In this document: piece after piece, positions 20,999 to 64,000 of the stretch | How positions within the stretch are numbered: position 1 is the first letter of the stretch | Layout of the letters: each line of letters opens with the position of its first letter | Assembly (NCBI GenBank): GCA_021018995.1 | Contig: CM037585.1 | Location: 124,958,831-125,022,830, forward strand | Origin: Chloranthus sessilifolius | Taxonomy: Eukaryota; Streptophyta; Magnoliopsida; Chloranthales; Chloranthaceae | Reading direction: 5' to 3' | DNA length: 64,000 nt | The notes under the pieces: generated by a model | Seen by the model: the letters and a program-made list of their open reading frames with translations, nothing else | Databases searched by the model: none | What the model was told of the DNA's origin: nothing | Program-made: the position numbers and the translations under genes

Positions 20999-21043
<45 letters not shown>

Positions 21044-21835: not shown

Positions 21836-21839
21836 GTTT

Positions 21840-22827: not shown

Positions 22828-22877
22828 CGGTGATCAGGTGATTTGATTTTCACACCGGTCAATCTCGTACCGGCGAA

Positions 22878-23168: not shown

Positions 23169-23276
23169 GCTCTAGTAGTGAGGTGTGCCTTTGCACAACC
23201 TCAATGAGATAAAAAGGAGGATTGACGAAGGGAGAACATCTTCCACACCTTTGCTACATGTGGGACAAAGAGTTGT

Positions 23277-23603: not shown

Positions 23604-23912
23604 TCCCAACTGAGTTATTAAACCTTTCGCACCAAATACTCAGAGGAAACCAGTGATCCCATCATTGAGTCGTGAGCGCCCTAATCTGGGAAAGCCTAGA
23701 GTTCTATCTCTAGGATCGATCTACGCTGCAACCTACGGATCTAACACCTGGACTGAACCCTACTTGAAGCATATGTGATTCTCCCATGGAATACTAAGAA
23801 AACCTGAGGTATTCGTTATATTTTGTGAATTTTATTGTTTAATTTAATTCTAATTTAATTCCAGCAAAATTAATCATATCATTCACGTAGTTTAGGGAAT
23901 CGTCCTGCGTCA
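23582..23912 (+). mobile_element. LTR segment captured inside E2 pol
   Basis: About 330 bp matching the distal part of the N2-type LTR (reverse complement of about 60924-61240). It includes the 'agagttctatctctagg' box and ends exactly at the LTR terminus CCTGCGTCA. Its left end has a 26-bp direct duplication (at 23582 and 23634). It replaces the protease-RT linker that E3 retains around 52265-52350. It resembles the N2 LTR more than E2's own LTRs, which points to template switching or insertion followed by partial loss. Confidence 0.85.
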
Positions 23913-23939
23913 GGAGGCCAGTCCAAGGCTATCAACATT

Positions 23940-24735
23940 GTGACCCCTTCAGAGTTTGAGAGGGCATCGAAAGATGAGAGCGTAGTCTATGTCGTCGTTA
24001 CCGTTGAAAGTACTCATGAGTCAGTACATGACTACCCCAAGGAGGTTGAGCCAATCCTGAATGAATTTGCGGATGTCTTCCCCGAAGACTTACCTAATGA
24101 GCTCCCTCCCATGCGTGACATTCAACACGCAATCGACTTGGTTCCTGGATCTACATTACCGAACCTGCCCCACTACATGTTGAATCGGGTTGAGCACGCC
24201 GAGTTGACTCGGCAAGTCAGTGAGCTCCTTCAAAAGGGGTTCATACAAGAGAGTCTGAGCCCGTGTGTTGTACCAGCATTACTCATGCCTAAGAAAGACG
24301 GTACATAGCGTATATGTATGGATAGCCGTGCAATTAATAAGATCACGGTTAAATATCGGTTTCCCATACCGAGGCTTGATGACATGTTTGACATGATGGT
24401 TGGTGCCACTATCTTTTCCAAGATAGACCTTAAAAGTGGCTGCCATCAGGTTCGTCTTCACCCTGACGATGAATGGAAAACCGCTTTCAAGACCAAAGAC
24501 GGTCTTTATGAATGGATGGTCATGCCTTTTGGGTTATCCAATGCCCCGAGCTCATTTTTGAGGTTCATGACCTAAGTGTTGAGGCCATTTCTTGGCAAAT
24601 TCTTTGTCGTATACTTTGATGATATATTGATTTACAGCCCAGACAAGGAACAACACATTATCCAGCTACGGTTGGTTTGTGAAACCTTGAGGGGAGAAAG
24701 GTTATACTTGAATCTCAAGAAGTGCACCTTCATGT
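23940..24735 (+). pseudogene. E2 reverse transcriptase
   Basis: RT blocks in order: [40 protein letters not shown] then a TAG at 24307 (TGG Trp in the usual sequence), [48 protein letters not shown], and an intact YFDDILIY catalytic motif near 24612-24635. Further stops occur at 24574 and 24735. After 24790 about 75 bases present in E3 are missing, with a frameshift. Confidence 0.9.
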
Positions 24736-24817
24736 AACAATCCGTTTTATTCTTGGGATTCATTATCTCGGTAGACGGGATGGTTGCTGACCCTGCGAAG
24801 GTTAAGGCCATTGTGGA

Positions 24818-26623: not shown

Positions 26624-26639
26624 CCCCACCTTGCAACCC

Positions 26640-26966
26640 CTACCATTCCCTTCCCCACGCAAGTAGCGCAGAGATGAGATCGAAGGAATAATAGATGATT
26701 TGGCGATATCCACCCATGGGGGCGGATTTCAAAAGTACTTGGTCGAGTGGTTGGGAAAGCCAGACTCCGACAACTCATGGTTAGCTGAAGACGAGGTGCG
26801 ACGCCTGGACCCCGACATGCTCGAGCGCTATCACGACGCCGCTTCATCGGTGATGAAGCCTTTTCGGCTCGAGAGAATTGACGGGGACGCCGACATCGTA
26901 GACATCGGATATAGACCTTTTCGCATGTACCGACGTCGGAAGAAGCGAAATGGAAATCAGAACTAG
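26640..26966 (+). CDS. E2 chromodomain and LTR-encoded basic tail
   Basis: GGFQKYLVEWLGKPDSDNSW and EDEVRRLDPDMLERYHD form a chromodomain, the chromatin-targeting module of plant chromoviruses. The ORF continues across the 3' LTR boundary at 26879 and ends 29 codons inside it with DIGYRPFRMYRRRKKR, a basic, possibly nuclear-targeting tail. The polypurine tract (GAGAGAAT) is also within codons. Confidence 0.88.
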
Positions 26967-27882
26967 GTGAACGAAAGAGGAAATTTGGAGAATTGGAGGA
27001 ACTTGACAATTTCGATCGATCGAAATATGTCGACAGAAAACACTATTTCTGGAGTGACATATATATAATTTGATCGATCGAATGTCCATTTCGATCAAAT
27101 CAGCTCAGTTCGATCGATCGAATTTCAGTGGCGAATTATTGATATATGTTTTTTCGATCGATCGAGTTTCACTTTCGATCGATTGAATTTTAACTTCGAT
27201 CGATCGAGTTTCACTTTCGATCGATCGAAATCGCGCAGAGTTATTTTAAAGTTTTAATTTCGAACTTAAGTTTTAGGGGCTTATTTGTCTTTTATTTAGT
27301 ATTTGTTTTAGGGTTTTCTTTTATTGTAAGACCTCCTATATAAGGTCCTTAAGAAAAACATTGTAATTAGTTATTGATTATGAATGAAAAGAGCTTTTGC
27401 TTGTGTGCTTGAGATGAGCCTCTACGAAGAGTGAATCTTCTTCCCGAGAAGGGTTTAGTGTGAAGCTAAGGGTGTGAAGCCCACAACATCTATCCTCTAC
27501 CTATGTCCTTATTTTATTTTCTTTCTTTGCTTCTAAATATCCTCATAAACCCGAAATCATAAACCCTAGCTTTTACCTAACCATTGATTCGACCCGATCT
27601 CATAAACCATAGAAGAATCAGAGATTCCATCATTGCATTGTGAGCGCCCTAATCTGGAAAGACCTAGAGTTCTATCTCTAGGACTGATCCGCATCGCTAT
27701 TCTAACGGATCTAGCGGAAAGGTTGAACCCTACTCGAACCAAACAAGATCTTTCACATGGAGGACTACGAACGCTTAAGGTATTCATTATATTTTCGGAT
27801 TTATTACTCAATTTAATTCAATTTAATTTCGGCAAACAATTAATCATCGCATTCATGTAGTTTAGGGTTTTGTCCTGCGTCA
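26879..27882 (+). repeat. E2 3' LTR
   Basis: 1004 bp. It begins TGACGGGGACGCCGACATCG within the pol ORF. The TCGATCGA palindrome array spans 27011-27232, a TATA-like 'tatataaggtcctt' lies near 27340, and it ends CTGCGTCA followed by the TGTTT duplication. Confidence 0.95.
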
Positions 27883-48057: not shown

Positions 48058-49048
48058 TGACGCGGATTTGTGACCCTAAACTACATAAATGAAGATGGAA
48101 TGCTATTTACCGAAATTAAACTAAAGTAATCAAGCAAAAATCATTACATAATCGTGATACCTTAAGGTTCATAGTTTTCCGCTTGGATGATCGTGTTGGT
48201 TCGAATAGGGTCCAGTTCGTTGCGCTAGATCCGTTAGCCTTGCGGAAGGAGGATCTTAGAGATAGAACTCTAGCCGCTTTCAGATTAGGGCGTCGATCTT
48301 CAATCAAAAAGGGATCGCTAGTTATCTCAGGGTGTTTTGATTCGGAATGGTTTGTTAGCTCAGGTGAGATCTAGGGTTTATTGAATTGGGTTGATTCAAT
48401 GGTTCAGATGAAGGCTAGGGTTTGGAATTTCGGTGAATTTAATTTGAGGTGAAATGAAATGAGGTTTATGGGATCAGAAAACATGGTAGTGAAAAGATAA
48501 ATCGAAATAGAGATAAAAGATAGATAATTGTGGGCTTCGCACCCGGACCCCTAGCTTCACACCAAACCCTTCGCGGGAGAGAAGATTCACTCCTCAAAAT
48601 TGTTCATCTCAAGCAGAAGCAAAATTGCTTTTCATTCATAATCAATAGTTAATTACATTGTTTATTAATAACCTTATATCGGAGGCCTCTAAAATAAAAG
48701 AAAACTCTAAAACAAAAACTCTAAAAAGGACAAGTTTGCCCATAAAAAACCTAATTTCGACTTTTAGCATATCTGACTCCGCGACAAATCGATCGATCGA
48801 TTTATATAAATATAAATCGCACGAATCTTGGGTCAAAATTGATCGATTGAAAATTTGTACTCGATTGATCGACTGAGCACCGAAATTCACCAAAAGCAAG
48901 ACTTCCCCTGTCCACAATTGATCGATCGAAAGCCTGGGGTCAATCGATCGACTGTGTACACCTATGTGCCCTCCTTTAGGCCTTTCTGAAGCTGAAAATT
49001 TTTGTTGCACCCCAAATCCAGGGCTCTCGATCTTGGCATCCCCTGTCA
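48058..49048 (-). repeat. N1 3' LTR
   Basis: 991 bp. On the minus strand it begins TGACAGGGGATGCC, within the ORF, and ends CCGCGTCA. It holds TCGATCGAT palindromes at about 48785-48950. The first codons encode GDAKIESPGFGVQQKF, the counterpart of the basic tail in E2 and E3. Confidence 0.9.
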
Positions 49049-49414
49049 TTCTCCTAGACCAAAAATGTTTTATCACCGATGAAACACGCATGTAATATTG
49101 ATCAAGTGTATTGGGACCCGAACTGTGGAACTCCTTGCAAGTAACCCAAACAATCTTAACATCTGGTGATGTATGATCATCTCGGTCAATTGTAGCGGGA
49201 TGCACACAGTAAACCTCTCATTGAGGAACCCAATAACCCGATTCACCAACCCACTCTACCAAATATTTTTTATGCTTCCTATCATCTCTCTCGGGCCCAA
49301 AGGAATTCATCCTCGATGAACTGTGATCGCGATATCGGTTGGGAATATAGGAACTCAAGCGGCGAACACTCTCATGATTGGTCCATGCACTGTCAGTAGT
49401 CGACTCACCAACCC
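49049..49414 (-). pseudogene. N1 chromodomain region, distal part
   Basis: Minus strand: RVGESTTDSAWTNHESVRRL (rest of chromodomain 1, begun beyond E3 at 56342), then a second chromodomain-like block RKHKKYLVEWVGESGYWVPQ with a stop, and MRVSSVIKHFWSRR leading into the LTR. E2 and E3 have only one such domain. Confidence 0.75.
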
Positions 49415-49419
49415 TTTTC

Positions 49420-50371
49420 TGACGGGGACGCCACTTACATGGACATTGGATTCCGACCACATTGTTTCTACCGGCGTAGAAAGAAGCAACATTATGGAAG
49501 TCAAAGCTAAGGAAAGATGGAAAGATGGAAATTCTGGAGAAAGAATGGCGAAATTTTGATTTCAAATTTCGATCGATCGAATTGACATTTCGATCAATCG
49601 AAATTCAAATTCGATCAATCGAATGTCGATGGCGATTTTCATAGAAATATGAAATTTCGATCAATCGATTTTCAATTCGATCGATCGAAATTACAAATCG
49701 ATCGATCGAATTCCAAATTCGATCGATCGAAATCGCGCCGAGAATTTTAGTTATTTTAGGAGTTTAATTTCGAACTTTTATTTCAAGGGTTTATTTGTCT
49801 TTTACTTATGCTTTGTGAAGAGAGTCTTCTTCCCCGCGATGGGTTTGGTGTGAGACTAAGGGAGTGATTCCGATATATTTTCCTTATTGTTGTCATTGCT
49901 TTGCGTGGTTTGCTTGATTATATTTGCTATCTAAATCTCTGCGTACTTCTCTAGCCATAGCTTAAATCCTTTCTTGTGATCCCCAAAACCCTAAACCCGT
50001 TTTGAAGCCTAAATCACACAAGCCAATACCTTTTCCAAAATCATAAACCGATCTAAAAGCCATAGGCCTTTACAAACCGTAAATCCCTTTCACAACCCAA
50101 TTTGGAATCCGCGAATCTATATCGGATCGAAGACGAGCACCTAATCCTAGAAAAGCTAGAGTACTATCTCTAGGCCGATCTCGCCTCGACTCTAAAGTAC
50201 TTGTGCATCGGACTGGACCCTATTTGGATCTCGTGTGATCTACCCATCAGAATTCTGCAAACCCTAAGGTATCAAAGATAATTTTGCGATTAAACTTGAA
50301 TTAATTTATTTAATTTCGACAAAATTTTCATTAAATCATATTCCGCATTTTAGGGTCGTTGTCCCGTGTCA
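49420..50371 (+). repeat. E3 5' LTR
   Basis: 952 bp. The opening 90 or so bases repeat the coding tail (DIGFRPHCFYRRRKK in frame). TCGATCGA/TCGATCAATCGA array at 49567-49735. The 'tcttcttccccgcgatggg' block and 'gctagagtactatctctagg' box are shared with the family. Ends CCGTGTCA. Confidence 0.95.
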
Positions 50372-50375
50372 GTTT

Positions 50376-50388
50376 TGGTATCAGAGCC
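50376..50388 (+). promoter_or_regulatory. E3 primer-binding site (initiator-Met tRNA)
   Basis: TGGTATCAGAGCC four bases after the LTR end. Confidence 0.95.
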
Positions 50389-50503
50389 CTAGGTTTGCTA
50401 GGTTAGGGCATCTTTGCTTGTCATATTTATTTTATTGCATTGTTTTCCCCTTTTGAGTCCATATTGCATTCCATATTAGAACCTAATAGACTTTCTGATC
50501 ACC

Positions 50504-51530
50504 ATGGCTTCGGATGAGGTTCTTAATACTCTGAGAGCTATGCAAGAAGAATTGGGTGCGATTAATGCACGTCTAAATAACATTGAGCAAGCCCAAACAT
50601 CCCTAGGAGTTGGTAATGATAGATTACGTGATCGAATCAACCAACTAGAAGCGATGAGTGGGCTGGAAAATCAACACCAAGAGCGTGAGTGTCCACACTT
50701 TGAACGTAATGGTCGCCAAGACAACGGGAACCGTAGGGATCATCGTAGAGATGATTATGACCCCGAAGTTTAACTCCTTGAGAACGTCCGAGTTCAGATT
50801 CCGACTTTCGATGGAAGAATGGACCCTATAGTTTTCCTCGATTGACTTTTTGACATAGACCAGCACTTTGATTGGTATGCCATGAATGACGGTCGTTGCG
50901 TTAAACTCGCTAAAATGAAGTTGGTTGGTCAAACTCGACTTTTCTACCTCAATGTTGAGCGCATTAGGGTGAACGCGGGTTGTCCTCCCATTACCTGTTG
51001 GGACGACATGAAGGAACGACTTACTGAGAAGTATGTTCCTTTATCATACCACCAATGCCTCCTCGACCAGTGGCAAAATTTACGTCAAGGTGGTATGCCC
51101 GTGACCCATGGGTCAAAATCTCAGGTTACCCATACGTATCGTCCGAGCTCCAAAACGATAGGTATCGGACGATACGTATCGGTATTGTCCGATACTGAAC
51201 GATACATTGAATGTATCGTTCGGTATCTGCCATACAACTGAACGATACGGTACATTGAATGTACCGTATCGTTCAACTCCGATACCGATACATATCGTTC
51301 GATACGTATCGGTATCGGACGAAATTTTGATCCATGCCATGACCGATTACATTGCCAAATTTGAAGAGTTCATGATGAGGGCAAAAGTATCGGAAAACCA
51401 TGAAATCACTCTCTAGATTACGCATCGGGTTGCGACTTGAATTGCAAAAAGAGTTGATTTCTCACCACGTAGAAACTCTTAAAAGATGCTATGCTGTTGT
51501 GCAAGATCTTGAGCGATACTTGAAAACTAT
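50504..51530 (+). pseudogene. gag: E3 Gag, interrupted by stops and a MITE
   Basis: Starts at ATG 50504 (context CACCATGG). The N-terminal helix EVLNTLRAMQEELGAINARL is followed by a stop at 50771. Capsid continues: VQIPTFDGRMDPIVFLD, stop, MKLVGQTRLFYLNVERIRVN, MKERLTEKYVPLSYHQCLLD and WQNLRQGGMPVT. The MITE (51107-51336) then intervenes before TDYIAKFEEFMMRAKVSE. A frameshift near 51413 leads into RIGLRLELQKELISHHVETL. Compared with E2 gag it is full length but dead. Confidence 0.92.
51107..51336. mobile_element. hAT-like MITE, copy 2, inside E3 gag, 8-bp TSD
   Basis: A 230-bp element with termini CATGGGTCAAAAT and ATTTTGATCCATG. It is flanked by CCGTGACC (51099-51106) and CCATGACC (51337-51344), an 8-bp duplication with one mismatch. 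Deleting the element and one flank restores the Gag reading seen in E2, which proves insertion. The interior is rich in CGATACGTATCG-type palindromes, as in copy 1 (13243-13458). Confidence 0.93.
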
Positions 51531-53154
51531 AGTGGTGAAGTGGACCGAGCCACAATATAGAGGTCAACGATCTGGTGAGGGACAATTTAATCCTCCTCCC
51601 AAACCTATACAACCTGCCCCTACCAATTCTAGGTTTGAAAAGGGAAAAAGTGTAGTTGGAGAATCCTCAAGGGTTAATTCTCAAGTAAAGTGCTATAAAT
51701 GTCATGGGATGGGACACTTTGTTGCCCAATGCCCAACGAAAGAACCCCAAAGGACTCTCTTCATTGAGGGAGAGGAGGATGATGATGAGGTAGTGGTTGA
51801 AGAAGAAGTATTTGAACCGATTAGCACACCTAGTGATGAGGAGGGTGATGCTATTGGCCATCCTTTAGTTGTGAGGTGTGCCCTTGCACAGTTTCAACGG
51901 GATGAAAATGATGACTGGCGTAGGGAGAACATCTTCCACACCTATGCTAGATTTGGTGAAAAGAATTGTAGGGTCATCGTGGATAGCGGTAGTTGTACTA
52001 ACGTAATATCAACTCATGTCGTACGCCGCTTAGGGCTTACACCTGAAGCCCACTCGAGACCTTATAAAGTCGCATCGGTCAATTCTTCATCCATTCCTGT
52101 GTCGAAAAGGTGTCATGTACCGATTCAATTGGGTTCTTATTCAGACAATTTATGGTGTGATGTGGTGCCGATGGATGTGGGCCATATCATTTTGGGAAGG
52201 CCGTGGCTCTATGACATGGATGTGACTCTTTCTGGTCGATCAAACATATGCACGTTCATGCATAAGTGCAAAAAGATCACTTTACACCCTTTGCCTCCCA
52301 AATCACTATCGACCAACACAGTCAAAAAGAAGGGCGAGTCTTCTAAATCCATTAATATTGTAAGCCCTTCTGAGTTCGAGAAAGCATCGATAGATGAGAG
52401 TGTAGTGTACGTAGTTGTCACTGTAGAGTGTGCTCCCGAGTCGGCGAGCGAGTGTCCCAAGGAGGTTGAGCCGATTTTAAAAGAGTTTACGGATGTCTTC
52501 CCTGAAGACTTACCAAACGAATTCCCTCCTCTACGTGATATCCAACACGCAATAGAATTGGTTCCCGGATCTACCTTGCTGAACCTGCCCCACTACAGGT
52601 TGAATCCAGTTGAGCACACCGAGTTAACTCGGCAAGTCAATGAGCTCTTTCAGAAGGGGTTCATCCAAGAGAGCATGAGCCCGTGTGCCGTACCTGCCCT
52701 ATTCATTCCTAAGAAAGATGGTACGTGGCACATGTGTTTGGATAGTCGTGCAATCAATAAGATTACCGTTAAGTATTGGTTTCCCATACCAAGGCTCGAT
52801 GACATGCTTGATATGATGGTTGGTGTCACTATCTTTTCAAAGATAGACCTTAAGAGTGACTACCATCAACTCCGTATCCTCCCCGGTGATGAGTGGAATA
52901 CTGCCTTTAAGACTAAGGATGGTCTTTATGAGTGGATGGCCATGCCATTTGGGCTTTCTAACGTCCCAAGTACTTTCATGCGACTCATGACCCAAGTGTT
53001 TAGACCGTTTCTCGGCAAATTCCTTGTTTTTTTCGATGGCATCCTGATCTACAATCATGACAAGGAACAACACTTGACCCACCTTACACTGGTTTGTGAA
53101 ACCCTTAAGGGCGAGAAGTTGTTTGCAAATCTCAAAAAATGCACCTTCATGTAA
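51531..53154 (+). CDS. E3 zinc knuckle, protease and reverse transcriptase (inactive)
   Basis: A single ORF (open from 51400). CCHC knuckle CYKCHGMGHFVAQC, acidic linker, protease VIVDSGSCTNVISTHVVRRL and GHIILGRPWLYD, protease-RT linker KSLSTNTVKKKGESSKSINI, then [70 protein letters not shown]. The active-site motif reads FFDGILIY (near 53031): the second catalytic Asp is Gly (GGC), so polymerase activity would be lost. The ORF ends at TAA 53152 in the thumb. Confidence 0.93.
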
Positions 53155-53169
53155 CGTTCTGTTGTTTTC

Positions 53170-54324
53170 TTGGGATTTATTATCTCAGCCAACCGAATGG
53201 TCGTGGACCCCGAAAAGGTGAGAGCCATTGTGGAGTGGCCCGAGCCTAAGAACATACACGATGTCCGTATCTTCCATGGTTTGGCTACTTTTTATCGCCG
53301 CTTCATCAAAAGCTTTAGCACCATCAAGGCCCCAATTACTGATTGCATGAAAGAAGGGGATTTTAAATGGGGCAAAGCGGCGACAAAAGCCTTTGTTGAG
53401 ATCAAACAACGAATGAGTAGTGCACCCGTCATGCGATTGCCGGACTTTTCTAAAGTCTTTGAAGTCGCATGCGACGCTTCGGGTGTAGGCATAGGAGGAG
53501 TGCTTAGCCAAGAGGGTCACCCTGTGGCCTATTTTAGTGAAAAACTTAACTAGGCGAAGTAAAAATACTCCACCTATGACAAGGAGTTCTATGCGGTTGT
53601 TCGATCTCTTTGGTATTGGAAACATTACCTTAGACAACAGGAATTTGTGCTGTTCTCTGACCATGAAGCCTTACGCTTTCTTACTTCACAGAAGAAGTTG
53701 AACCCAAGGCACGCGAAGTGGGTTGAGTACCTTCAAGGGATCACATTCGTGTTAAAGCATAAGGCCGGTGCTGAAAATAAGGCCGCTGATGCACTTAGTC
53801 GGCGAGTGGTGACTTTGCGCACAATGAGCGCCGAGGTCGTCGGGTTTGAAAAGTTAAAGGATGAGTACCCCGAGTGCCAAAATTTTAAGGTTGAGTACAC
53901 TGCTCTCCTTAGTAACCCGACCAGCACACACTCTGTGTACATCATCCAGGATGAGTACTTATTTAAAGGCAATCGCCTTTGCATCTCTCGCACTTCATTG
54001 CGTGACTTTCTCATTTGGGAGTTACATGTTGGAGGGATGGCCGGACACTTCGTGCGTAATAAAACTGTTGCGCTTGTAGAGGATAGGGTTGTCAAATATT
54101 GTCGTACTTGCCAAGTGTTAAAACAGACCAAACAAAATACCGGCTTGTACACCCCGTTACCCATGTCACACACACCGTGGCAAGACCTCTCAATGGATTT
54201 CGTGCTTGGACTTCCTAAGACCCCTAGGAAGCACGACTCCATCTATGTCGTAGTGGACCGATTTTCCAAGATGGCCCACTTCATTCCTTGTTCTAAAACC
54301 TCCGATGCATCTCATATTACTTAA
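53170..54324 (+). pseudogene. E3 RT end, RNase H and integrase N-terminus
   Basis: RT connection: [20 protein letters not shown]. RNase H-like block: [20 protein letters not shown], stops at 53552 and 53561, then YSTYDKEFYAVVRSLWYWKH and KHKAGAENKAADALSRRV. Integrase zinc finger: the H-x-GG part is present, but about 13 residues before C-R-T-C are deleted (after 54075). Core start LSMDFVLGLPKTPRKHDSIY. A stop lies at 54322. Confidence 0.9.
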
Positions 54325-54342
54325 CTATTTTTCACGGAGGTA

Positions 54343-55414
54343 GTGCGTCTTCATGGGTTGCCCAAAACTATTGTGTCTGATAGGGATATTAAATTTACGA
54401 GTTACTTTTGGAAGACCCTTTGGCACATGATGGGCACAATGCTCCAATTCTCAACTGTTTACCACCCTCAATCGGATGGCCAAACCGAAAGCACCAATAG
54501 GAGCCTTGGGAATCTCCTTCGTAGTCTTGTCGGTGATCATGTTAGGACCTGGGATACCATCTTACCCACAACTGAGTTTGCATATAATAATTCAGTCAAT
54601 AGGTCCATAGGCATGAGTCCTTTTGAGGTAGTGCATGGTCATAGGCCTAGGACCCCATTATATTTGATCCCCATGTCTGCATCCCATAGTGTCAGAGTCC
54701 ACCGATGCATTTGCACAACATATTCATAGCTTGCATGTCGAAATTAAATAGAAAGTTAATTCAAGCAACAATCAATATAAATTATCTGCAGATGCTCACA
54801 GGCGTTCTAAAGAATTTAACGTGGGTGATTACGTGATGGTCCGGGTTTGGCCTAAGCAGTTCCCATCGGGATCCGCAAAGAAGCTCCAATCTCGAGGCGC
54901 TAGGCCTTTTAGAATTTTGGCTAAGAGTGGTCCTAATGCATACGTGCTCGAGCTTCCTCCAGGTACAGGGGTTAGTTCCACGTTCAATGTGGAGGACTTG
55001 GTTCCTTACTTGGGTTTCACCCCACCTCCTGAAAACCCCCTCCTGCCACCTCCTAGTCCCAGCCCCAATCCAACCTTGCAACCCATACCTCTTCCTTCCC
55101 CAAGTAGACAGAGATCAGATGAGATAGAAGATATAATCAATAATCATGCCGTCTCTATACATGACGGGGGATTCCAGAAATACTTGGTTAAATGGGTTGG
55201 CAAACCGGAGTCCGAAAATACTTGGGTCCACGAGAATGAAGTTCGCCGCTTGAACCCCGACCTACTTGATATCTACCGCGAGCGTGTTTCATCGGTGATG
55301 AAACCTTTTTTGTCTAGGGGAATTGACGGGGACGCCACTTACATGGACATTGGATTCGAACCACATTGTTTCTACCGGCGTAGAAAGAAGCAGCATTATG
55401 GAAGTCAAAGATAA
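54343..55414 (+). pseudogene. E3 integrase core, GPY/F module, chromodomain and LTR-encoded tail
   Basis: SDRDIKFTSYFWKTLWHMMG (second Asp), PQSDGQTESTNRSLGNLLR (Glu) and VVHGHRPRTPLYLIPMSA, then a frameshift near 54690. GPY/F-like: VGDYVMVRVWPKQFPSGSAK and RPFRILAKSGPNAYVLELPP. Chromodomain: GGFQKYLVKWVGKPESENTW and NEVRRLNPDLLDIYRER. The ORF crosses the LTR start (55324) and ends at 55414 with FYRRRKKQHYGSQR. The polypurine tract AGGGGAAT is inside codons. Confidence 0.92.
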
Positions 55415-56336
55415 GGAAAGATGGAAATTCTGGAGAAAGAATGGCGAAATTTTGATTTCAAATTTCGATCGATCGAAGTGACATTTCGATCGATCGAAAA
55501 TTCCGATCAATTGAAATTCAAATTCGATCCATCGAATGTCGACGACAATTTTCATAGAAATATGAAATTTCGATCAATCGAAATTTCAAATTGATCAATC
55601 GAAATCGCGTCGAGAATTTTAGTTATTTTAGGAGTTTAATTTCGAACTTTTGTTTCAAGGGTTTATTTTTCTTTTATTTAATATTCGTTTTAGGGTTTTC
55701 TTTTATTGTAAGACCTCCTATATAAGGTCTTTAAACAATGTAATTAAGGGAGTTGATTGATTATTGAATGAGAGCTTATGATTCGTGAAGAGAGAGTCTT
55801 CTTCCCCGCGATGGGTTTGGTGTGAGACCAAGGGAGCGATTCCAATATATTTTCCTTATTGTTGTCATTGTTTTGCGTGGTTTGCTTAATTATATTTGCT
55901 ATCTAAATCTCTGCGTGCTTCTCTAGCCATAGCTTAAATCCTTCCTTGTGATCCCCTAAACCCGTTTTAAAGCCTAAATCACACAAGCCAATATCTTTTC
56001 GAAAATCATAAGCCGATCTAAAAGTCATAGGCCTTTACAAACTGTAAATCCCTTTCACAACCCAATTTGGAATCCGCGAATCTACATCGGACCGAAGACG
56101 AGCACCTAATCCTAGAAAAGCTAGAGTACTATCTCTAGGCCGATCTCGCCTCGACTCTAAAGTACTTACGCATCGGACTGGACCCTATCTGGATCTTGTG
56201 TGATCTACCTATCAGAATTCTGCAAACCCTAAGGTATCAAAGATAATTTTGCGATTAAACGTGAATTAATTTATTTAATTTCGGCAAAATCTTCATTAAA
56301 ACATATTCCGCATTTTAGGGTCGTTGTCCCGCGTCA
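55324..56336 (+). repeat. E3 3' LTR
   Basis: 1013 bp, longer than the 5' LTR because a block including 'gtaagacctcctatataagg' (TATA-like, about 55708-55727) is kept here and missing at the corresponding point of the 5' LTR (near 49805). Ends CCCGCGTCA then TTTTC. Confidence 0.95.
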
Positions 56337-56341
56337 TTTTC

Positions 56342-56933
56342 ATCTTATAAATCAGAAACTCTCTGTCGTAGGTGAATGCCATAAGATCATCTGAGATCTT
56401 CTCAATGACCTCGCTACTAATTTTGGTTGGAGGAGGAAAAGATAGGGGTTGTGGGATTGGGTTTGGTGCACAAAAAAAGGATGTTTGAAAAAGAGTTCTA
56501 GATGAGGAACTAGGTCTTCCATATTGAGTGTCAAACTAATCCCTGTATCTGGAGGAAGCTTAAGAACGTACGCATTAGGACCACTCGTTGCCACAATTTT
56601 AAAAGGTCCAGCGCTGCTGGCTTGGAGCTTCTTTGCGACTCCCGATCGAAATCTTTCAGGCCTAACTGGAACCATCACATGATCATTTAATTGGAATTCT
56701 ATAATAGTCTTTGGTAAATGCATCAATAATTTGAGAGTTTCATTGCACAAATTAATTTTAAGCGTAATTTCGGCGTGTAATGCGGAATGAGAATCAAAAC
56801 TTGACTCACAATAAGACTCGGAATGTGAAGAGGCATACAACTCGAGACTATGATGTGTATGTGTATCTATGGACTCGATACTCTCATGTGGATGCGACGC
56901 TAACGACTCATGTGTAGTGGACTCTATCAACAC
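56342..56933 (-). pseudogene. N1 spacer end, integrase C-terminal (GPY/F-like) module and start of chromodomain 1
   Basis: The minus-strand ORF (56933-56352) begins with the H-E-S repeat spacer (TTHESLASHPHESIESIDTH). It then reads SALHAEITLKINLCNETLKL, IIEFQLNDHVMVPVRPERFR, KKLQASSAGPFKIVATSGPN and AYVLKLPPDTGISLTLNMED. These match the C-terminal integrase/GPY-F region of E2 and E3, but nothing of the integrase core precedes them. In another frame the downstream part reads SEVIEKISDDLMAFTYDREF with LIYKMK, the start of a chromodomain that continues at 49414. Confidence 0.85.
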
Positions 56934-57390
56934 TAGTGACTCGTGTGATCGAATGACTCATGTGGACTCGACTCAACGGATTCCAATGACTCATGTGGAC
57001 TCGACTCAACGGAATCCAATGACTCATGGGTAAGTGACTTGATTGGCTCGTGTGTACTTTGTTCGACCAATTTCAAAGCCTCAAGTGTACTCGACTCTAC
57101 CAACAACAAAGGCTCGTGCACAACTGACTCGACGGACACTAACAACTCGGGCGCACGCGATTCGGTCGAATCGCGCATGGGTGACTCGATTGTCGCACGT
57201 GTGGATGACTGAACATGACTACTCACAAGGGAAATAAAATCTCTTTAACACAAACTAGACTTTCGTCAGCTTCTTCCATCCCCTCGTCACTCATCACGGT
57301 TCTTAGGTCATATACAATTTCTTCCACTTTCATATTTTCCGGTTCCTTAGAACTCTCTTTTAGTCAATAAATTCGGAGTGGAAAATTTTG
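56934..57390 (-). pseudogene. N1 His/Glu/Ser-rich repeat spacer
   Basis: Minus-strand ORF 57226-56933: ATIESPMRDSTESRAPELLV, HEPIKSLTHESLDSVESSPH and ESLESVESSPHESFDH. Repeating units of about 12 residues centre on H-E-S-L/F. At DNA level a 36-bp unit containing 'gactcatgtggactcgactc' is tandemly repeated (56966-57025). An upstream acidic leader (57240-57350) matches N2's VEEEVYDPRTVMSEEEIEEA. No enzyme domain. Confidence 0.85.
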
Positions 57391-58170
57391 TGGGGCATTA
57401 GTAAGGAAAGTGTCCAAATCCGTGATACTTGAAACATTTGTTGCGACCATTAATTTTGGGGCTCTCAATAATCGTTCCTTTCCCATTATCGATTTGGGAA
57501 TTCAGAGTAATCACGGGTTTTAATGCTTGAACCCCGAAATTATATCTCTTATGGATAATTCGTTTCCCGTGATCAATTTGAGGATTCATAGGAGTATGCG
57601 CGGGTTTCGATGGTAGAACCCCGAAATTAGGGCTCTCCTTAGTGTAGGTGATCCTTGGCTCAAGTTGGGTGTGTTTATGATACTTATCCACCTTAGCTTC
57701 CAAAACCGTAGAAGGTAGTGGTACATGAAATGAACATAATTCTCAATTAGTTGCTCCCTCATATTCTCCCATCGTGTGATGGGCTTACAATTAGCTAACT
57801 CGCGTCGAAACTCAACATTAGTCCAAAAGGTTTTGGCATGACTCACCAACCTCGTCTTAGCTAACTCAACCTTATACTCATCCAACACATCATACGAGTC
57901 AAAATACTCCTCTATGCTAGACAACCAGCCCACGAAGGGTTTAGGCTTCGCCATACCCTCAATATATGGGACTTCGACTTGAATGAACCTTAGACATTTT
58001 CTATCAAGATCATATTCGGGCTCACAATAATGGGAGTATCCCCTGACTCTAGTCTCATCACGACGTTTGGGACTTTGCCAAGAATTTGGAGTGTAGCGAC
58101 TCCTATTATTAATCGCAAACAACTCGGCTTTGATGTCCCTAAGGGCATCGAAAAACTCACTCATGTCCAT
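57391..58170 (-). pseudogene. gag: N1 Gag and zinc-knuckle region
   Basis: ATG at 58170 in context CACCATGG. N-terminus MDMSEFFDALRDIKAELFAI. Capsid: FIQVEVPYIEGMAKPKPFVG, WLSSIEEYFDSYDVLDEYKV, ELAKTRLVSHAKTFWTNVEF and WENMREQLIENYVHFMYHYL. A frameshift near 57600 leads to NGRNKCFKYHGFGHFPY, a zinc knuckle whose second Cys is Tyr. Gag is clearly related to, but distinct from, that of E2 and E3. Confidence 0.9.
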
Positions 58171-58334
58171 GGTGATCACGACTTACTACACGGGTTCTAA
58201 ATGACATGCAAATATGAACCAACAATGGATGAGGAATTTTGTCAAACAGTAGACATGCATACTAATGACCACAATTGAAATAAAATGCAATAAAAATTAA
58301 AATGTCACACAAATATGCCCTAACCTAGAACCTA

Positions 58335-58347
58335 GGCTTTGATACCA
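58335..58347 (-). promoter_or_regulatory. N1 primer-binding site
   Basis: The minus strand reads TGGTATCAAAGCC, the initiator-Met primer site with one change, four bases inside the 5' LTR. Confidence 0.9.
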
Positions 58348-58351
58348 AAAC

Positions 58352-59318
58352 TAACGCGGATAGGTGACCCTAAACTATATAAATGAAGATGAAATGTTAT
58401 TTGCCGAAATTAAACTGAATTAATCAAGCAAAAATCAATGCATAATCGCGATACCTTAAGATTCATAGTTTTCCACTTGGATGATCGTGTTGGTTTGGGT
58501 AGGGTCCAGTCCGTTGCGCTAGATTCGTTAGCCTCGCGGAAGGATAATCCTAGAGATAGAATTCTAGCCGCTTCCAGATTAGGGTGTCGATCTTCAATCA
58601 AAATGGGATCGCTGGTTTTCTTAGGGTGCTTTGATTTAGAATGGTTTGTTGGCTCAGGTGAGATCTAGAGCTTATTGAATCGGGTCGATTTAACGATTCA
58701 ACTATGGCTTGGAATTCGGTGAATTTAAATTGAGGTGAAATGAAATGGGGTTTATGGGATCAGAAAACAAGGTAGAGAAAAGATAAATCGAAATAGAGAT
58801 AAAAGATAGATAATTGTGGGCTTCGCACCCACACCCTTGGCTTCACACCAAACCCTTCGCGGGAGAGAAGATTCACTCTTCAAAATTGTTCATCTCAAGC
58901 AGAAGAAAAGTAGCTTTTTATTCATTATCAATTGTGAATTACATTATTTATTAACGACCTTATATAGGAGGCCTCTAACTCTAAAACAAATACTCTAAAA
59001 AGGACAAGTTTGCCCATAAAAACCAAATTTCGATTTTGGCATATCTGACTCCGCCACAAATCAATCGATCGATTTATATAAATATAAATCGCACGAAGTC
59101 TCTGGTCAAAATTGATTGATCGAAAATTTGTACTCGATCGATCGACTGAGCACCGAAATTTACCAAAAGCAAGACTCCCCCTGTCCACAATTGATCGATT
59201 GAAAGCCTGGGTTCGATCAATCGACTGTGTACACCTTTGTGCCCTCCTTTAGGCCTTTCTGAAGCTGAAAAATTCTGTTGCGGCCTAAATCCAAGGCTCT
59301 CGATCTTGGCGTCCCCCA
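58352..59318 (-). repeat. N1 5' LTR
   Basis: About 967 bp and closely similar to 48058-49048. It starts (minus) TGGGGGACGCCAAGATCGAG, apparently having lost two bases of TGACGGGG, and its end is changed from TGACGCGG (plus-strand reading) to TAACGCGG. TCGATCGAT palindromes occur at 59065-59220. Confidence 0.88.
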
Positions 59319-60322
59319 ATGAAGGAAACAAAAGCTCTCTTGATAAGCTCCTGATACTCTCTTTGTGTTAGGGTTACTAAAGTTGATCATGTCTGAGTTG
59401 TAGGAGGTGCTGGCTGCATAGTGGGAGTAGTTGGTGTAACATCATCTCTTTGTGTTAGGGTTACTAAATCACAGTTGTTATGTTGGTATACCATCCAAAT
59501 CCCAACAAGTCTCCCTTTTCTGCCTTAATGAGTGCACATCAAATTGTCTTTCTCTTCCTCTGATAAGCCACTACAGCCTGCTGACTCCACGACGGAACTG
59601 AGTAAATGTAGGAAGAGCTAAACGCTCTAGTGCATCAATGGGCACATGCATTAGCTGACCTATGCTCTCATCATGTTGCAGAAAAGAGAAGACAGTGTCA
59701 AGTGGAGGACACTGCTCCCGTCCGAGTATACTAGCACAAACACTCTCGTAATCAGGATTAACGACCCTTAACTGATTAAATATTTTCTGTCTCTCGAGTG
59801 AACGAATAGTCTTTCCCACACATTCACTAGGTTAACTAATGCATCTACTGCTCGCATCATTCTCCTGATATTTTGCCAGTTCGTCCCATATATTCCTCAA
59901 CAGTGTATAATATTCTCTAATTGATCTTTCACCCTGACGGATATTACTAATCTGGTTAATCAATTGAAACATTTTAGGAAGGTTTTACCTTTTCTGAGAA
60001 GGCGCCACCTCCCATATTTCTTTTGCATCAGTAGCATACAGAAAGGAGCGATTGATTGCAGACTGCATAGAATGAAGGATCCATGTCATCACAGTAAGAT
60101 TATCACACTCCCAGTCAATGTTTTTAGGATCCGTGACATCTAGTTCGAGAATACTCCCATGTATATACCCTAATTTCCTTTTTGAGTCCAAGGACATGCA
60201 AGCAAATCGTGACCATTCAATGTAATTGGTCCCATCAAACTTCACCATAGTTATATGCAACCAGTGTGGTCTTCGCCGTCACTACTGGTACTAACTTTCA
60301 TTTCTTCCATTGCAGGAAAGCC
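59319..60322 (-). pseudogene. gag: Copia Gag (UBN2-type) upstream of N1 insertion
   Basis: Minus strand: a start near 60322 (MEEMKVSTSSDGEDHTG), a frameshift, then VKFDGTNYIEWSRFACMSLD, SKRKLGYIHGSI, TVMTWILHSMQSAINRSFLY and AKEIWE (60260-59985). The next segment is RQKIFNQLRVVNPDYESVCA and LGREQCPPLDTVFSFLQHDE (59819-59571). These are the N-terminal and middle blocks of copia Gag. N1 lies between this and the integrase at 48057, and the knuckle and protease between them are missing. Confidence 0.85.
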
Positions 60323-60923
60323 GAGTTACAGTGGCTACACAGCCGTGGAATGACAATAACTAATACTGATCAACACATAAACGACAACAATTCTGGTCAG
60401 CAATACTACTGATCAGCCCAAAGTTCAGTATACTAGCTCTTCCCAATCACCAGAAGACCAAGGAATAGCGAGCACGACATTACCCATGAACACAAAACGC
60501 ATCGCATCTCCCTTCATATTTCTCAAAATTCTGCAGTTAGCCGTTCAAATGAAATATGATTTAAATCCGATCCAAACCCTACCTTATATTAGTACAGATC
60601 AACCGCACATGGATCGTGGGCACAATTTTTTGTGAACTAGTGTAAAAAATGCTATATATGGACCGTAACTTTACACTGGTCTTAAAACTTCCGTGTACAT
60701 ATTTGTTCCTAATTTCATCATTTCTTGTTACGCCACAAATCCACCAAGCATACGCATTTCAACCACACGGATCCTTTCTTATGTCATTTCATAATTTCCC
60801 CAACACCATGCACCATTAAATAATACAGGTGATGACAAAACATATAAAAGTCCCATACAATTATATTGACACTCGATCAGACAACATACTACTCATCTCT
60901 CCACTTTTCGCACCAGTGATAAT
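60323..60923. other. Unassigned sequence between copia gag and N2
   Basis: It would be expected to hold the copia leader and 5' LTR, but I could not find a primer-binding site or LTR boundary. No coding feature. Confidence 0.4.
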
Positions 60924-62014
60924 TGACGCAGGACGGTTCCCTAAACTACGTGAATGATATAATTGATTTTGCCGGAATTAAATTAGAATTAAATTAAACA
61001 ATAAAATTCACAAAATATAACGAATACCTCAGGTTTTCGTAGTATTCCATGAGAGAATCACATATGCTTCAAGTAGGGTTCAGGCCAGGTGCTAGATCCG
61101 TAGGTTGCAGCGTAGATCGATCCTAGAGATAGAACTCTAGGTTTTCCCAGATTAGGGCGCTCATGACTCAATGATGGGATCACTGGTTTCCTCTGAATAT
61201 TTGGTGTGGAAGGTTTAATAACTTAGTTGGGATCTACGGTTGTTGAATCGGATCGATTCAAGGATTTAGGGACAATTAGGGTTTAGGATTTCAAAAGGGA
61301 TAGATAATAGGAGATAGATAGGTAGATAAAAGATAGATAGGTAGATAGAAGATAGATAGGTAGATAGAGGATAGATTGTAGGCTTCACACCCTTGGCTTC
61401 ACACCAAACCCTTCTCGGGAAGAAGAATCACTCTTCGTAGAGGCTCATCTCAAGCACACACAAGCAAAAACTTTTTCATTCATAATCAATAACTAATTAC
61501 ATTGTTTAACTTAAGGACCTTATATATGAGTCCTTTCAAACAAAAATAAAACCCTAAAACAAATTCTAAAAGGACAAGTATGTCCCTGAAAATTAAGTTC
61601 GAAATTAGAAAATTATCCAAAATTAAAAACTGCACGATTTCGATCGACCGAAAGTGAAGTTGGATCAATCGAAATTTAAATTCGATCGATCGAAAGTGAA
61701 ACTCGATCGATCGAAAAAACATATCTCAAAAATTAGCCGCTGAAATTCGATCGATCAAAGGGAAATTCGATCGATCGAATTATATACTCCAGAACTATAT
61801 AATTCCCTCTACAATTCAATTTCGATCGATCGAGAATTTCGATTGATCGAATATATATTTCGATCGATCGAAATTTGCAGTATTCTCCCAATTCGCCAAA
61901 TTTCGTCATATTTCGTCTCTTTTCGCCTAGCTCTGATGTCCAGTCTGCTTCTTCCGACGTCTGTATACATGAAACAGTCCATATCCAATGTCTACGATGT
62001 CGGCGTCCCCGTCA
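60924..62014 (-). repeat. N2 3' LTR
   Basis: 1091 bp. Minus reading starts TGACGGGGACGCCGACATCG and ends CCTGCGTCA. The first codons read DIVDIGYGLFHVYRRRKKQT, the LTR-encoded basic tail. TCGATCGATCGAA arrays span 61640-61875. A GATA-rich minisatellite is at 61300-61377. Closely related to the segment captured in E2 pol. Confidence 0.93.
61300..61377 (+). repeat. GATA-rich minisatellite in N2 LTR
   Basis: Units of about 20-21 bp built from 'agatagataggtagata' repeated three to four times. Confidence 0.9.
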
Positions 62015-62460
62015 ATTCTCCCTGACTCAAAGTGTTTCATCACCGATGAAACACGCATGAAGTGAATCTTGTCACTCGGTGACGTATGAGTATCATCTCG
62101 GTCCATTGTAGAGGGACGTACCTAGTAAACCTCTCCTTGACGAGCCCAATAACCCGGCTCGCCAAGCCACTCTACCAAATACTTTTGAAGTTTCGCATCG
62201 ACTCTCCCGGACCCGAAGGAATTCATCCCCGATGAAGTGTGCTCGCGATATCGACGGGGAATACGGGAACTCAAGCAACGAACTCTCTCATGATTGGCCC
62301 ATGCACTCTTGGTAGTTGACTCACCAATCCTCTGCATCTTATAGACCAGAAAGGCCGCAGGTGAATGCCACAAGATTATCCCAAATTTCCTCAATTATCT
62401 TTTCTCTCTGCCTACTTGGATTGGAAGTCGTATTGGCTGCAAGTTGGGATGGGATTGTAA
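62015..62460 (-). pseudogene. N2 tandem chromodomain-like region
   Basis: Minus strand: FLVYKMQRIGESTTKSAWAN with HERVRCLSSRIPRRYREHTS (chromodomain 1), then VDAKLQKYLVEWLGEPGYWA with RQGEVY (chromodomain-like 2) and MRVSSVMKHFESGRIDGDAD entering the LTR. One stop lies between the second domain and the tail. The layout is the same as N1. Confidence 0.78.
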
Positions 62461-62845
62461 CTAGGGGTTGTTTGGAACAAGTTGCAAGGAGGTAGGGTTG
62501 AGCTCAAAGAAGGAACTAGGTCCTCACATTGAACGTAGAGTTGACCCCAATATCTGGAGGAAGCTCAAGATTATACGCACTAGGACTGTTTTTTGCCACA
62601 ATTTCAAAAGGTCTAGCGCCGTAGGCCTGGAGATCCTTTACGACTCCCGATGGGAATTGTTTAGGTCCAATCTGAACCATTGCATGATCATTCAATTGGA
62701 ATTCCATAAAAGCCTTAGGTAACTGCATCGATATTTTGAGAGTTTCATTGCATAAATTAATTTCAAACTTAATTTCGGCATGCAATGCGGAATGAGACTC
62801 AAAAGATGACTCACAATAAGACTTGGAATGTATAACAGTATGCAA
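62461..62845 (-). pseudogene. N2 integrase C-terminal (GPY/F-like) module
   Basis: Minus strand: SALHAEIKFEINLCNETLKI, FMEFQLNDHAMVQIGPKQFP, VKDLQAYGARPFEIVAKNSP and YNLELPPDIGVNSTFNV. It aligns with N1 56870-56510 and the integrase end of E2 and E3. It is in a different frame from the repeat spacer upstream because of a frameshift near 62850. Confidence 0.85.
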
Positions 62846-63513
62846 CTCGAGACTATGATGTGTATGTGTGTCATGGACTCGATTCTCTCATGTGCCTGCG
62901 ACGCTAATGACTCACATGTAGTGGCCTGTATCAACACTGGTGACTCATGTGCAGTGGGCTCGACCAACACTAGTGACTCATGTGTGATCGAATCAAGTGA
63001 CACTAATGACTCATGTGGACTATGATGTGCATGCAACTCACATGTAACTGACTCAATTGGTTTGTGTGTGCTCTGTTCAATCAACTTTAAAGATTCAAGG
63101 GCACACGACTCTACCACCAACAAGGACTCGTGCACAACTGGATCTATGGGCCCTAAAAAATTGTGCGTAGGTGACTCGGTCGAATCGTGCGTGGGTGACT
63201 CAACATTACTACTCACAAGGAAATAAGAAGTCCTTTTAACACAAACTAGACTCTCTTCAGCTTCTTCGATCTCCTCTTCACTCATCACGGTTCTAGGGTC
63301 ATACACTTCTTCTTCTACTTTCATATTTTCCGGCTCCTTAGAACTATCCCGTTTAATCAATAAATTCGGAGAGGAAACTTGTGTGGAGCATTGGTAAGCA
63401 AAGTGTCCGAACCCTTGACACTTAAGACAATCAGAACACTTATTTGTCTTGGTTCTCAAACTCCTTAGAAGGTGACGGTGTGTCAAAGGAACATACTTTT
63501 CAATAAGTGTCAC
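62846..63513 (-). CDS. N2 zinc knuckle, acidic leader and His/Glu/Ser repeat spacer
   Basis: Minus-strand ORF (63513-62692). The knuckle CLKCQGFGHFAYQC (C-x2-C-x4-H-x4-C, intact) comes first. The acidic leader KVEEEVYDPRTVMSEEEIEE is next, then about 12 spacer units such as VVHESLLVVESCALESLKLI, SPHESLVSLDSITHESLVLV and TCESLASQAHERIES. It is intact over 220 residues before a frameshift into the integrase C-terminal module. No protease or RT follows. Confidence 0.85.
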
Positions 63514-64000
63514 CTACATATCCTCCCATGTGGAGATGGGTTTAATCCGACGAAAGTCAATACGGCATTCCATATGAATCCAAAATTTTTTGGCATTTCC
63601 CTTTAACTTTGTTGTCACTAGCCTAATCTTGTACTCATCTGGTACGCCATACCAATCAAAGTACTCCTCTACACTAGACAACCACTCCACAAAGGTTCTA
63701 GGGTCCGTCGTACCCTCAAAATCTGGGACCTCATTCCGAATAGAGTTTAGAAACTTTTTAGCAGAGTCGTATTCAGGTTCATGATGATGAGGATATCCAC
63801 GAACTCTATTCTCATCACGACTTTTGGAGCTTTGCCAAGAATGTGGAGTGTAGTGGTTCCCTCGTTCGGCTAGCATTCTTTCATGACAGGTAACGAATTT
63901 ATGGTGACGTGCAGTGACTCATTCATGATGCTTGTCACAAACACAACTGAGACACAATTCTATGAACCACATAACAGTTGAGGAATTTTAACAAACACAT
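63514..64000 (-). pseudogene. gag: N2 Gag (runs to window end)
   Basis: Minus strand 63876-63514: HYTPHSWQSSKSRDENRVRG, FVEWLSSVEEYFDWYGVPDE, YKIRLVTTKLKGNAKKFWIH and IKPISTWEDM, then a stop at 63512 before LIEKYVPLTHRHLL. A deletion joins the capsid end to the zinc knuckle. The extreme N-terminus and the 5' LTR lie at or beyond 64000. Confidence 0.88.

What the first reader, a model, noticed from the sequence alone, without database searches (positions are those of the whole stretch)
48058..64000. A non-autonomous Ty3 family that keeps Gag and chromatin-reading modules but no enzymes (N1, N2)
Seen: two separate copies share the same order: LTR, Gag, zinc knuckle, acidic leader, H-E-S repeat spacer, integrase C-terminal module, chromodomain region, LTR. 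Both lack protease, RT, RNase H and the integrase core at the same place. Finding the same architecture twice argues that it was mobilised as such and is not two independent deletions. Known: chromodomains target chromovirus integration. Inference: the product could be a Gag carrying its own chromatin reader, copied by E2/E3-like helpers that share LTR and primer-site features. I know of no description of this exact domain set.
Basis: partly seen in the sequence, partly recalled or inferred. Interest (0 to 1): 0.87.

Follow-up and report, generated by a model that had tools for sequence, protein, structure and literature searches.

The report
Enzyme-less retrotransposon with duplicated chromodomain
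A plant genome carries a large family of jumping elements that lack the enzymes for jumping but still encode a shortened coat protein joined to two copies of a chromodomain, and some of them wear the end sequences of complete relatives that probably copy them.

Summary
Real, and more than two decayed copies. N1 and N2 belong to a high-copy non-autonomous chromovirus family: 3,097 and 3,160 first-look genome candidates for two HES queries. Of 42 HES loci read, 0 carry protease, RT, RNase H or integrase core inside the cassette, and HES abuts the integrase C-terminal module within 0-5 bp in 42 of 42. Of ten copies checked, seven have exact 5-bp target duplications, one 4 of 5, N1 none, one unresolved.

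Corrections: Gag lacks its capsid C-terminal half, and the chromodomain region is two diverged tandem copies. Autonomous relatives have one (10 of 10).

Helpers: one autonomous E2-lineage copy shares U3, R-U5 and leader at 90-92% with L031-type N copies; another N copy wears E3-type R-U5/leader at 91-96%, switching just before Gag. The frame was mostly open until insertion; purifying selection is clearest in Gag/zinc knuckle, undecided for HES, integrase C-terminus and chromodomains.

Known kind (Quinta/Cereba, Sabrina/WHAM, hop noaCRM); the domain set is a new variant. Protein function untested.

The parts
58352..59318 (-). N1 5' LTR
   Evidence: pair with 3' LTR 88.9% identical, K2P 0.104; bounds read
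58335..58347 (-). N1 primer binding site TGGTATCAAAGCC
   Evidence: one base from the E2/E3 site (TGGTATCAGAGCC)
57740..58170 (-). N1 partial Gag (capsid N-terminal part), approximate ends
   Evidence: ORF 57589-58182, tblastn to E2 Gag 5e-31
57395..57436 (-). N1 degenerate zinc knuckle
   Evidence: CFKYHGFGHFPY*C
57232..57363 (-). N1 acidic leader, approximate
56781..57231 (-). N1 HES spacer with 33-bp tandem units
56510..56780 (-). N1 integrase C-terminal (GPY/F, SH3_Tf2-1) module
   Evidence: Pfam PF24626 E 4.4e-13
56337..56460 (-). N1 chromodomain 1, first part, cut by E3
   Evidence: tblastn to E3 chromodomain region
49420..56336 (+). E3, autonomous-type chromovirus nested in N1: Gag, CCHC, PR, RT, RNase H, integrase, GPY/F, one chromodomain; frames broken; duplicated target TTTTC
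   Evidence: LTR K2P 0.056
49280..49419 (-). N1 chromodomain 1, second part
49060..49279 (-). N1 chromodomain 2, approximate
48058..49048 (-). N1 3' LTR
63514..63918 (-). N2 partial Gag (leader and 5' LTR continue beyond the window)
   Evidence: ORF 63517-63918; Arc_capsid_dom 3.6e-4, below its cut-off; E2 Gag match
63388..63429 (-). N2 CCHC zinc knuckle CLKCQGFGHFAYQC
   Evidence: zf-CCHC_3 0.0018, below its cut-off
63235..63340 (-). N2 acidic leader, approximate
62786..63234 (-). N2 HES spacer with 33-bp tandem units
62519..62785 (-). N2 integrase C-terminal module
   Evidence: PF24626 E 3.2e-8
62204..62400 (-). N2 chromodomain 1, approximate
62026..62203 (-). N2 chromodomain 2, approximate
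60924..62014 (-). N2 3' LTR; target duplication ATTAT at 60919-60923
20922..27882 (+). E2, autonomous-type element of a helper lineage, duplicated target TGTTT, one chromodomain; frames broken

Best explanation
N1 and N2 belong to a high-copy, roughly 4.3-kb non-autonomous Ty3/gypsy chromovirus family. Shown in the copies read: a common derived structure in which Gag lacks its capsid C-terminal half, a repetitive HES spacer stands where protease through integrase core would be, and the chromodomain is duplicated (number and order of steps unknown). Also shown: L031-type copies share U3, R-U5 and leader with an autonomous E2-lineage copy, and one copy (L060) has E3-lineage R-U5 and leader, each with the switch just before Gag. 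Inferred: N RNA is co-packaged with helper RNA, copied by helper reverse transcriptase with template switching in the leader, and inserted by helper integrase. The frame stayed open, or nearly so, up to insertion, so the fusion (partial Gag - CCHC - acidic/HES - integrase C-terminus - two chromodomains) was probably still made and selected, at least in its Gag/CCHC part. Most likely role (inferred, not tested): an RNA-binding adaptor that enters helper particles, its C-terminal part either contacting the helper pre-integration complex and chromatin or being a passenger.
For: Same order in 42 HES loci read, none with enzymes inside the cassette; HES abuts IntC exactly in 39 and within 5 bp in 3 of 42; 3,097 and 3,160 first-look candidates. 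Of ten copies checked, 7 have exact 5-bp target duplications and 1 has 4 of 5. Autonomous copies at C1:170.99 Mb and C3:29.46 Mb carry paired LTRs 5.7 kb apart matching an N LTR at 89-92%, hold RNase H - IN core - GPY/F in order, with frameshifts, and one chromodomain; the C1 copy matches N copies at 91-92% through R-U5 and leader up to just before Gag, then continues into a full-length E2-type Gag. L060: E3-like 91-96% through R-U5/leader, then N cassette 93%. Stops: 3.3 per copy over 635 codons, against 1.8-4.5 simulated (674 codons) for post-insertion decay and 11-19 for neutral drift since the N1 split. Omega 0.30 for zinc knuckle/acidic, 0.42 for Gag, 0.50 without Gag; neutral simulation means 0.60-0.79 by piece.
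Against: The loci are the best-scoring ~1.3% of candidates, chosen by similarity to HES. Omega for HES, IntC, chr1 and chr2 singly falls within neutral single-pair ranges, which are wide (0.28-1.48 over all pieces), and Gag could carry constraint from autonomous donors through recombination. 22 of 58 stop positions recur in two or more copies, so some stops may predate insertion; frameshifts were not counted. N1 has no target duplication. Two related copies lack most of the GPY/F module (L067, L068). A close helper was found for L031-type LTRs and for L060 only; the other N LTR types matched the sampled autonomous LTRs at about 70-77%. The C3 helper's U3 is only 73-81% like N. The C1 helper's primer site differs by one base, and an exact TGGTATCA is missing in 12 of 42 N loci (in some the locus may end short of it). 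No transcript or protein data.
Confidence: 0.8

Rival explanations
1. N1 and N2 are independently decayed autonomous elements that lost pol by separate deletions.
For: Both are old, with stops and frameshifts; N1 lacks a target duplication.
Against: Same HES-IntC junction in 42 of 42 loci read, tandem chromodomain found downstream in 39 of 42; seven of ten copies checked have exact target duplications.
Confidence: 0.02
2. A purely passive parasite: the cassette moves in trans and its coding sequence has no role; the open frame is inheritance from young source copies plus constraint imported from autonomous Gag.
For: HES, IntC, chr1 and chr2 omega falls within neutral ranges; capsid C-terminus missing; most of GPY/F can be lost (L067, L068); chromodomain 1 lost its core box; 22 of 58 stop positions are shared.
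Against: Stop numbers fit post-insertion decay only; 20 of 41 copies still hold an open sense frame of 300 aa or more (6-mer-shuffled mean 106, reverse strand median 168); zinc knuckle/acidic omega 0.30.
Confidence: 0.3
3. The ancestor was a composite element carrying full pol followed by a second Gag-HES-IntC-chromodomain unit, and N elements arose by deletion between the two leaders.
For: One locus has this order: L058+L044, C11:3.15 Mb.
Against: Its junction is spanned by 1 of 40 scored hits, itself; its 5' LTR joins Gag at residue 36 with no primer site or leader seen between; the ten E2-like autonomous loci read show no HES. It looks like a late template-switch mosaic.
Confidence: 0.05

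Closest known systems
RLG_Quinta / RLG_Cereba of einkorn wheat (PMC11302176; abstract, outline and passages read)
   Same: Non-autonomous partner with an open frame for GAG plus an extra domain; shares primer site, LTR ends and part of the LTR with an autonomous chromovirus.
   Different: Quinta's extra domain is unknown (DUF1) and the pair is centromere-specific; here the extra part is HES, integrase C-terminus and two chromodomains, the Gag is truncated, and two helper lineages are seen.
Nonautonomous CRM (noaCRM) of hop, Humulus lupulus (PMC12371157; passages and section 19 read)
   Same: Lacks RT, RNase H and INT, outnumbers the autonomous form (482 against 189), shares LTR/PBS groups with it, has target duplications. 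The paper names six domains in the autonomous form including a chromodomain and says the nonautonomous form lacks three, so a chromodomain may remain.
   Different: No protease here; integrase C-terminus kept; HES spacer and duplicated chromodomain; CRM clade and centromere location not tested.
RLG_Sabrina and RLG_WHAM with helper RLG_Wilma, wheat (PMC9744471; passages read)
   Same: High-copy semi-autonomous Gypsy elements encoding GAG (with protease) but no RT or INT.
   Different: No integrase C-terminus or chromodomain is mentioned for them in the passages I read.
TR-GAG elements (definition recalled; search listing only)
   Same: LTRs, primer site, a GAG-related frame, no pol enzymes.
   Different: TR-GAGs carry GAG only (recalled); this family adds pol-derived C-terminal modules.

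Membership tests
Ty3/gypsy chromovirus (Metaviridae) | LTRs TG...CA, primer site, 5-bp target duplication | tested here: met
   seven exact duplications of ten copies checked, one 4 of 5, one none, one unresolved; exact TGGTATCA in 30 of 42 loci
Ty3/gypsy chromovirus (Metaviridae) | PR - RT - RNase H - integrase core | tested here: not met
   0 of 42 loci have these within the cassette; present in E2 and E3
Ty3/gypsy chromovirus (Metaviridae) | chromodomain behind the integrase C-terminus | tested here: met
   profile comparison with the autonomous chromodomain: 98.2% (E 3.9e-14) and 99.9% (E 2.9e-31) for the two copies; Pfam Chromo itself does not score
Non-autonomous partner as defined for Quinta/Cereba | same primer site, LTR ends and regulatory half of LTR as an autonomous family | tested here: met
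   for L031-type copies and L060; primer site one base different in the C1 helper; not shown for the other N LTR types
Non-autonomous partner as defined for Quinta/Cereba | intact GAG frame | tested here: inconclusive
   long open frames (up to 594 aa) but the capsid C-terminal half is missing
TR-GAG | GAG as the only coding domain (recalled) | tested here: not met
   SH3_Tf2-1 and chromodomains
Hop-type noaCRM | lacks RT, RNase H, INT | tested here: met
Hop-type noaCRM | protease retained | tested here: not met
   retention in hop is inferred from the paper's legend
Hop-type noaCRM | CRM clade and centromere location | not tested
   clade not typed; no centromere map

The most novel reading that the evidence does not exclude
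The cassette encodes a working trans-acting adaptor: its Gag/CCHC end enters helper particles and binds RNA, while the helper-derived integrase C-terminus plus a duplicated chromodomain tethers helper pre-integration complexes to chromatin, so an element without enzymes influences where its helper's cDNA, and its own, is inserted. The cassette changes helpers by swapping LTR and leader.
Probability: 0.2. Interest if true: 0.78.

Novelty: new variant of a known kind. Interest (0 to 1): 0.52.

Why it matters
Plant genomes hold many enzyme-less elements, but whether their leftover proteins do anything is open. This family keeps the modules that bind RNA and, in relatives, chromatin, and copies of it are seen in the LTR and leader dress of two autonomous lineages with the switch just before Gag in both. 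That makes helper choice, template switching and trans-acting targeting testable in one genome.

Tried and rejected
Independent decay: rejected by shared junctions. Composite ancestor: disfavoured, junction single-copy among 40 scored hits. Pfam Chromo on N ORFs gave no hit, so profile-profile comparison was used. AlphaFold2 of an N2 chromodomain-1 piece with four window sequences: mean pLDDT 35.7, no use. Protein database search with L031's open frame: 9 proteins, covering 11-36% of the query; I read five of the nine (P0001, P0003, P0006, P0007, P0009), saw no HES repeats in them, and did not inspect the alignments; these five are Gag/IntC gene models that keep protease parts or have other junctions. 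Literature: 'two chromodomains' + retrotransposon + integrase gave 1 unrelated paper; 'tandem chromodomain' + LTR retrotransposon gave 0; further searches. Absence from print rests on these seven searches of open PMC text only, of which I opened five papers in part.

Rows set aside: minus-strand matches; matches of the E3 zinc-knuckle/PR/RT piece that end before residue 175 (knuckle and acidic region); matches of the first residues of one E2 RT piece, which come from an LTR fragment inside E2. Four loci (L020, L021, L026, L036) have an E2 integrase alignment that starts at residue 33-50, i.e. drags over HES; in N1 that stretch is of low identity, the other three were not inspected.

Sampled autonomous LTRs (E2, E3, L048-L057, L066, L069) matched N LTRs only at about 70-80% except L060 with E3; the closer helpers came from the LTR query.
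Full report
What is in the window. A self-comparison and termini show four related LTR elements. E2 (20922-27882, plus strand) and E3 (49420-56336, plus strand) are autonomous in type, with Gag, CCHC, protease, RT, RNase H, integrase, GPY/F module and one chromodomain, their frames now broken, and duplicated targets TGTTT and TTTTC. N1 (59318 to 48058, minus strand) is interrupted by E3 inside its chromodomain. N2 (about 65243 to 60924, minus strand) runs off the window; its 5' LTR was recovered from the genome (L035). Without E3, N1 is about 4.34 kb, like N2 (about 4.32 kb). LTR divergence is 0.104 for N1 and 0.056 for E3, in keeping with E3 being the later insertion. N1's LTR ends show no target duplication (TTCAT, GATAA); N2 has ATTAT on both sides.

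Anatomy of N. tblastn of E2/E3 pieces onto N1 and N2 finds Gag, zinc knuckle/acidic, integrase C-terminus and chromodomain, and no PR, RT, RNase H or integrase core. Pfam SH3_Tf2-1 (the GPY/F-type module) scores 4.4e-13 in N1 and 3.2e-8 in N2. Re-entry into pol-derived sequence is in the linker behind the integrase core, at or up to about 20 residues before the LHAEI motif (E2 matches mostly start near residue 75 of the piece, LHAEI being near 93). Before it lies the HES spacer, with 33-bp tandem units in both. First, Gag is only the N-terminal part: in the 19 loci with an E2-Gag match it ends at residue 179-199 (N1's alignment drags on to 229 at low identity), while E2's Retrotrans_gag domain spans 147-244. 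Second, the chromodomain region is a tandem duplication: profile comparison to the autonomous chromodomain gives 98.2% (E 3.9e-14, 71 columns) for copy 1 and 99.9% (E 2.9e-31, 77 columns) for copy 2; copy 1 has YEMQR in place of YLVEW, and copy 2 lacks the N-terminal strand (from 18 and 15 stop-free segments and 5 autonomous ones). Plant retrotransposon chromodomains of group II lack cage aromatics anyway (PMC3350952, passages read), so histone binding cannot be read off the sequence.

A family, not two wrecks. The window lies in a 2.17-Gb assembly. HES queries from N2 and N1 gave 3,097 and 3,160 first-look candidates, of which 40 each were scored and 30 and 12 loci cut (L001 is N2, L036 is N1). 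In all 42 loci the order HES - IntC - chromodomain 1 holds, with HES and IntC abutting exactly in 39 and within 5 bp in 3. Gag is found in 41 of 42 (not L047), and chromodomain 2 downstream in 39 of 42 (not L030, L047, nor L036, where E3 separates it). None has enzymes in the cassette; L023 shows only a weak match to the end of the acidic region, four loci show an integrase alignment dragging over HES, and L044 has pol upstream of Gag. Ten copies were checked for ends: exact 5-bp duplications in L031, L032, L033, L034, L060, L063 and N2; 4 of 5 in L062; none in N1; L061's LTRs could not be resolved. LTR divergences, L061 left out, are 0.049-0.104. At a rate of 1.3e-8 (recalled, not from a call) that is roughly 2-4 million years.

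Helpers. E2-like autonomous loci L048-L057 (L048 is E2 itself): 10 of 10 have one chromodomain, no HES match, and integrase core continuous with IntC apart from frameshifts. An LTR query from L031 gave 40 scored places out of 4,244 candidates. Two same-strand pairs are 5.7 kb apart, the size of an autonomous element; one pair is 3.1 kb apart with an N HES hit between. Pieces of the two long ones hold RNase H, integrase core and GPY/F in order, with frameshifts, and a single chromodomain. For the copy at C1:170.99 Mb, U3 is 90% identical to L031's and R-U5/leader 91-92% to L020 and L026 up to just before the start codon, after which it has a full-length E2-type Gag (85%, residues 4-274); its primer site differs by one base from L031's. 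The other copy's U3 is only 73-81% like N. L031-type is the nearest U5 type in 14 of 42 loci, L032-type in 11. L060 shows the same logic with another lineage: E3-like at 91-96% through R-U5, primer site and leader, then N cassette at 93%, with the first ~110 bp of U3 still N-like. Its whole LTR is at distance 0.17 from E3, where other N LTRs are at 0.49-0.74. L071 has an N1-like LTR (71%) and leader in front of a full autonomous-type Gag, then breaks off. The simplest reading is template switching between co-packaged N and helper RNAs in the leader. Recombination between chromovirus subfamilies, with co-packaging and template switching as one proposed cause, is reported for grasses (PMC4079200, passages read). 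For L032-type and N1-type N copies no close helper was found.

Is the protein used? Codons were compared piece by piece along tblastn matches. In 31 copies dN/dS falls from 0.83-1.15 for the closest fifth of pairs (Gag, HES, IntC, chr1; 0.46 for zinc knuckle, 0.65 for chr2) to 0.32-0.62 for the most distant fifth. With the observed transition bias a neutral simulation gives 0.62-0.72, so part of the drop is method. Between the N2-like and N1-like groups omega is 0.42 [0.30-0.55] for Gag, 0.30 [0.18-0.50] for zinc knuckle/acidic, 0.54 [0.40-0.73] for HES, 0.56 [0.38-0.79] for IntC, 0.47 [0.35-0.63] for chr1, 0.60 [0.42-0.84] for chr2 and 0.50 [0.43-0.59] without Gag; neutral means are 0.60-0.79, with wide single-pair ranges: under one of the two mutation settings these include every observed value, under the other (stronger C-to-T bias) zinc knuckle/acidic (0.30 against 0.35-1.17) and the pooled value without Gag (0.50 against 0.52-0.89) fall just below. 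Stops average 3.3 per copy, as expected for decay after insertion (1.8-4.5) and far below neutral drift since the N1 split (11-19); but 22 of 58 stop positions are shared by two or more copies, so some may be inherited or recurrent, and frameshifts were not counted. 20 of 41 copies hold an open frame of at least 300 aa on the sense strand (median 284, max 594); reverse strand median 168, max 202; 6-mer-shuffled mean 106. So the frame was open or nearly so up to insertion, with selection clearest for Gag/zinc knuckle and undecided for the pol-derived end.

Against my reading. The sample is small and biased to best matches; Gag may owe its constraint to recombination with autonomous donors (gag dS reaches 0.76 in its top fifth of pairs, HES dS 0.29); two copies (L067, L068) have lost most of GPY/F but keep both chromodomains; the structure model failed; no RNA or protein evidence exists here.

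Novelty. Enzyme-less GAG-coding partners are known (Quinta, Sabrina/WHAM, hop noaCRM). I found no report of a partner with integrase C-terminus, HES spacer and duplicated chromodomain. New variant of a known kind.

Noticed in passing
L058 and L044 (G000:C11, about 3146650-3153800): One-off mosaic: N1-like LTR joined to autonomous Gag at residue 36 through integrase core, then N leader-Gag-HES-IntC-two chromodomains; its junction is single-copy among 40 scored hits.
   Followed up: yes
L067 (C5:29457365) and L068 (C1:180637416): N-type copies that have lost most of the GPY/F module but keep Gag, HES and both chromodomains, apparently sharing the same deletion.
   Followed up: partly
window 23602-23912: An LTR fragment 95.5% identical to the end of N2's LTR lies inside E2's pol region.
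   Followed up: no
window 28094-33061, minus strand: LINE-type element with DUF4283, RanBP-type zinc finger (below cut-off), endonuclease and RT domains, GC-rich against its surroundings.
   Followed up: no
window 36683-37915, plus strand: Fragment of a LINE-like reverse transcriptase (RVT_1 below cut-off) with zf-RVT.
   Followed up: no
window 42466-42919 and 43749-44333: Tandem arrays of about 80-bp and 109-bp units.
   Followed up: no
L071 (G000:C10:34559058-34562176): Autonomous-type Gag behind an N1-like LTR and leader, broken off after Gag; possibly a relative of the N1 helper.
   Followed up: partly
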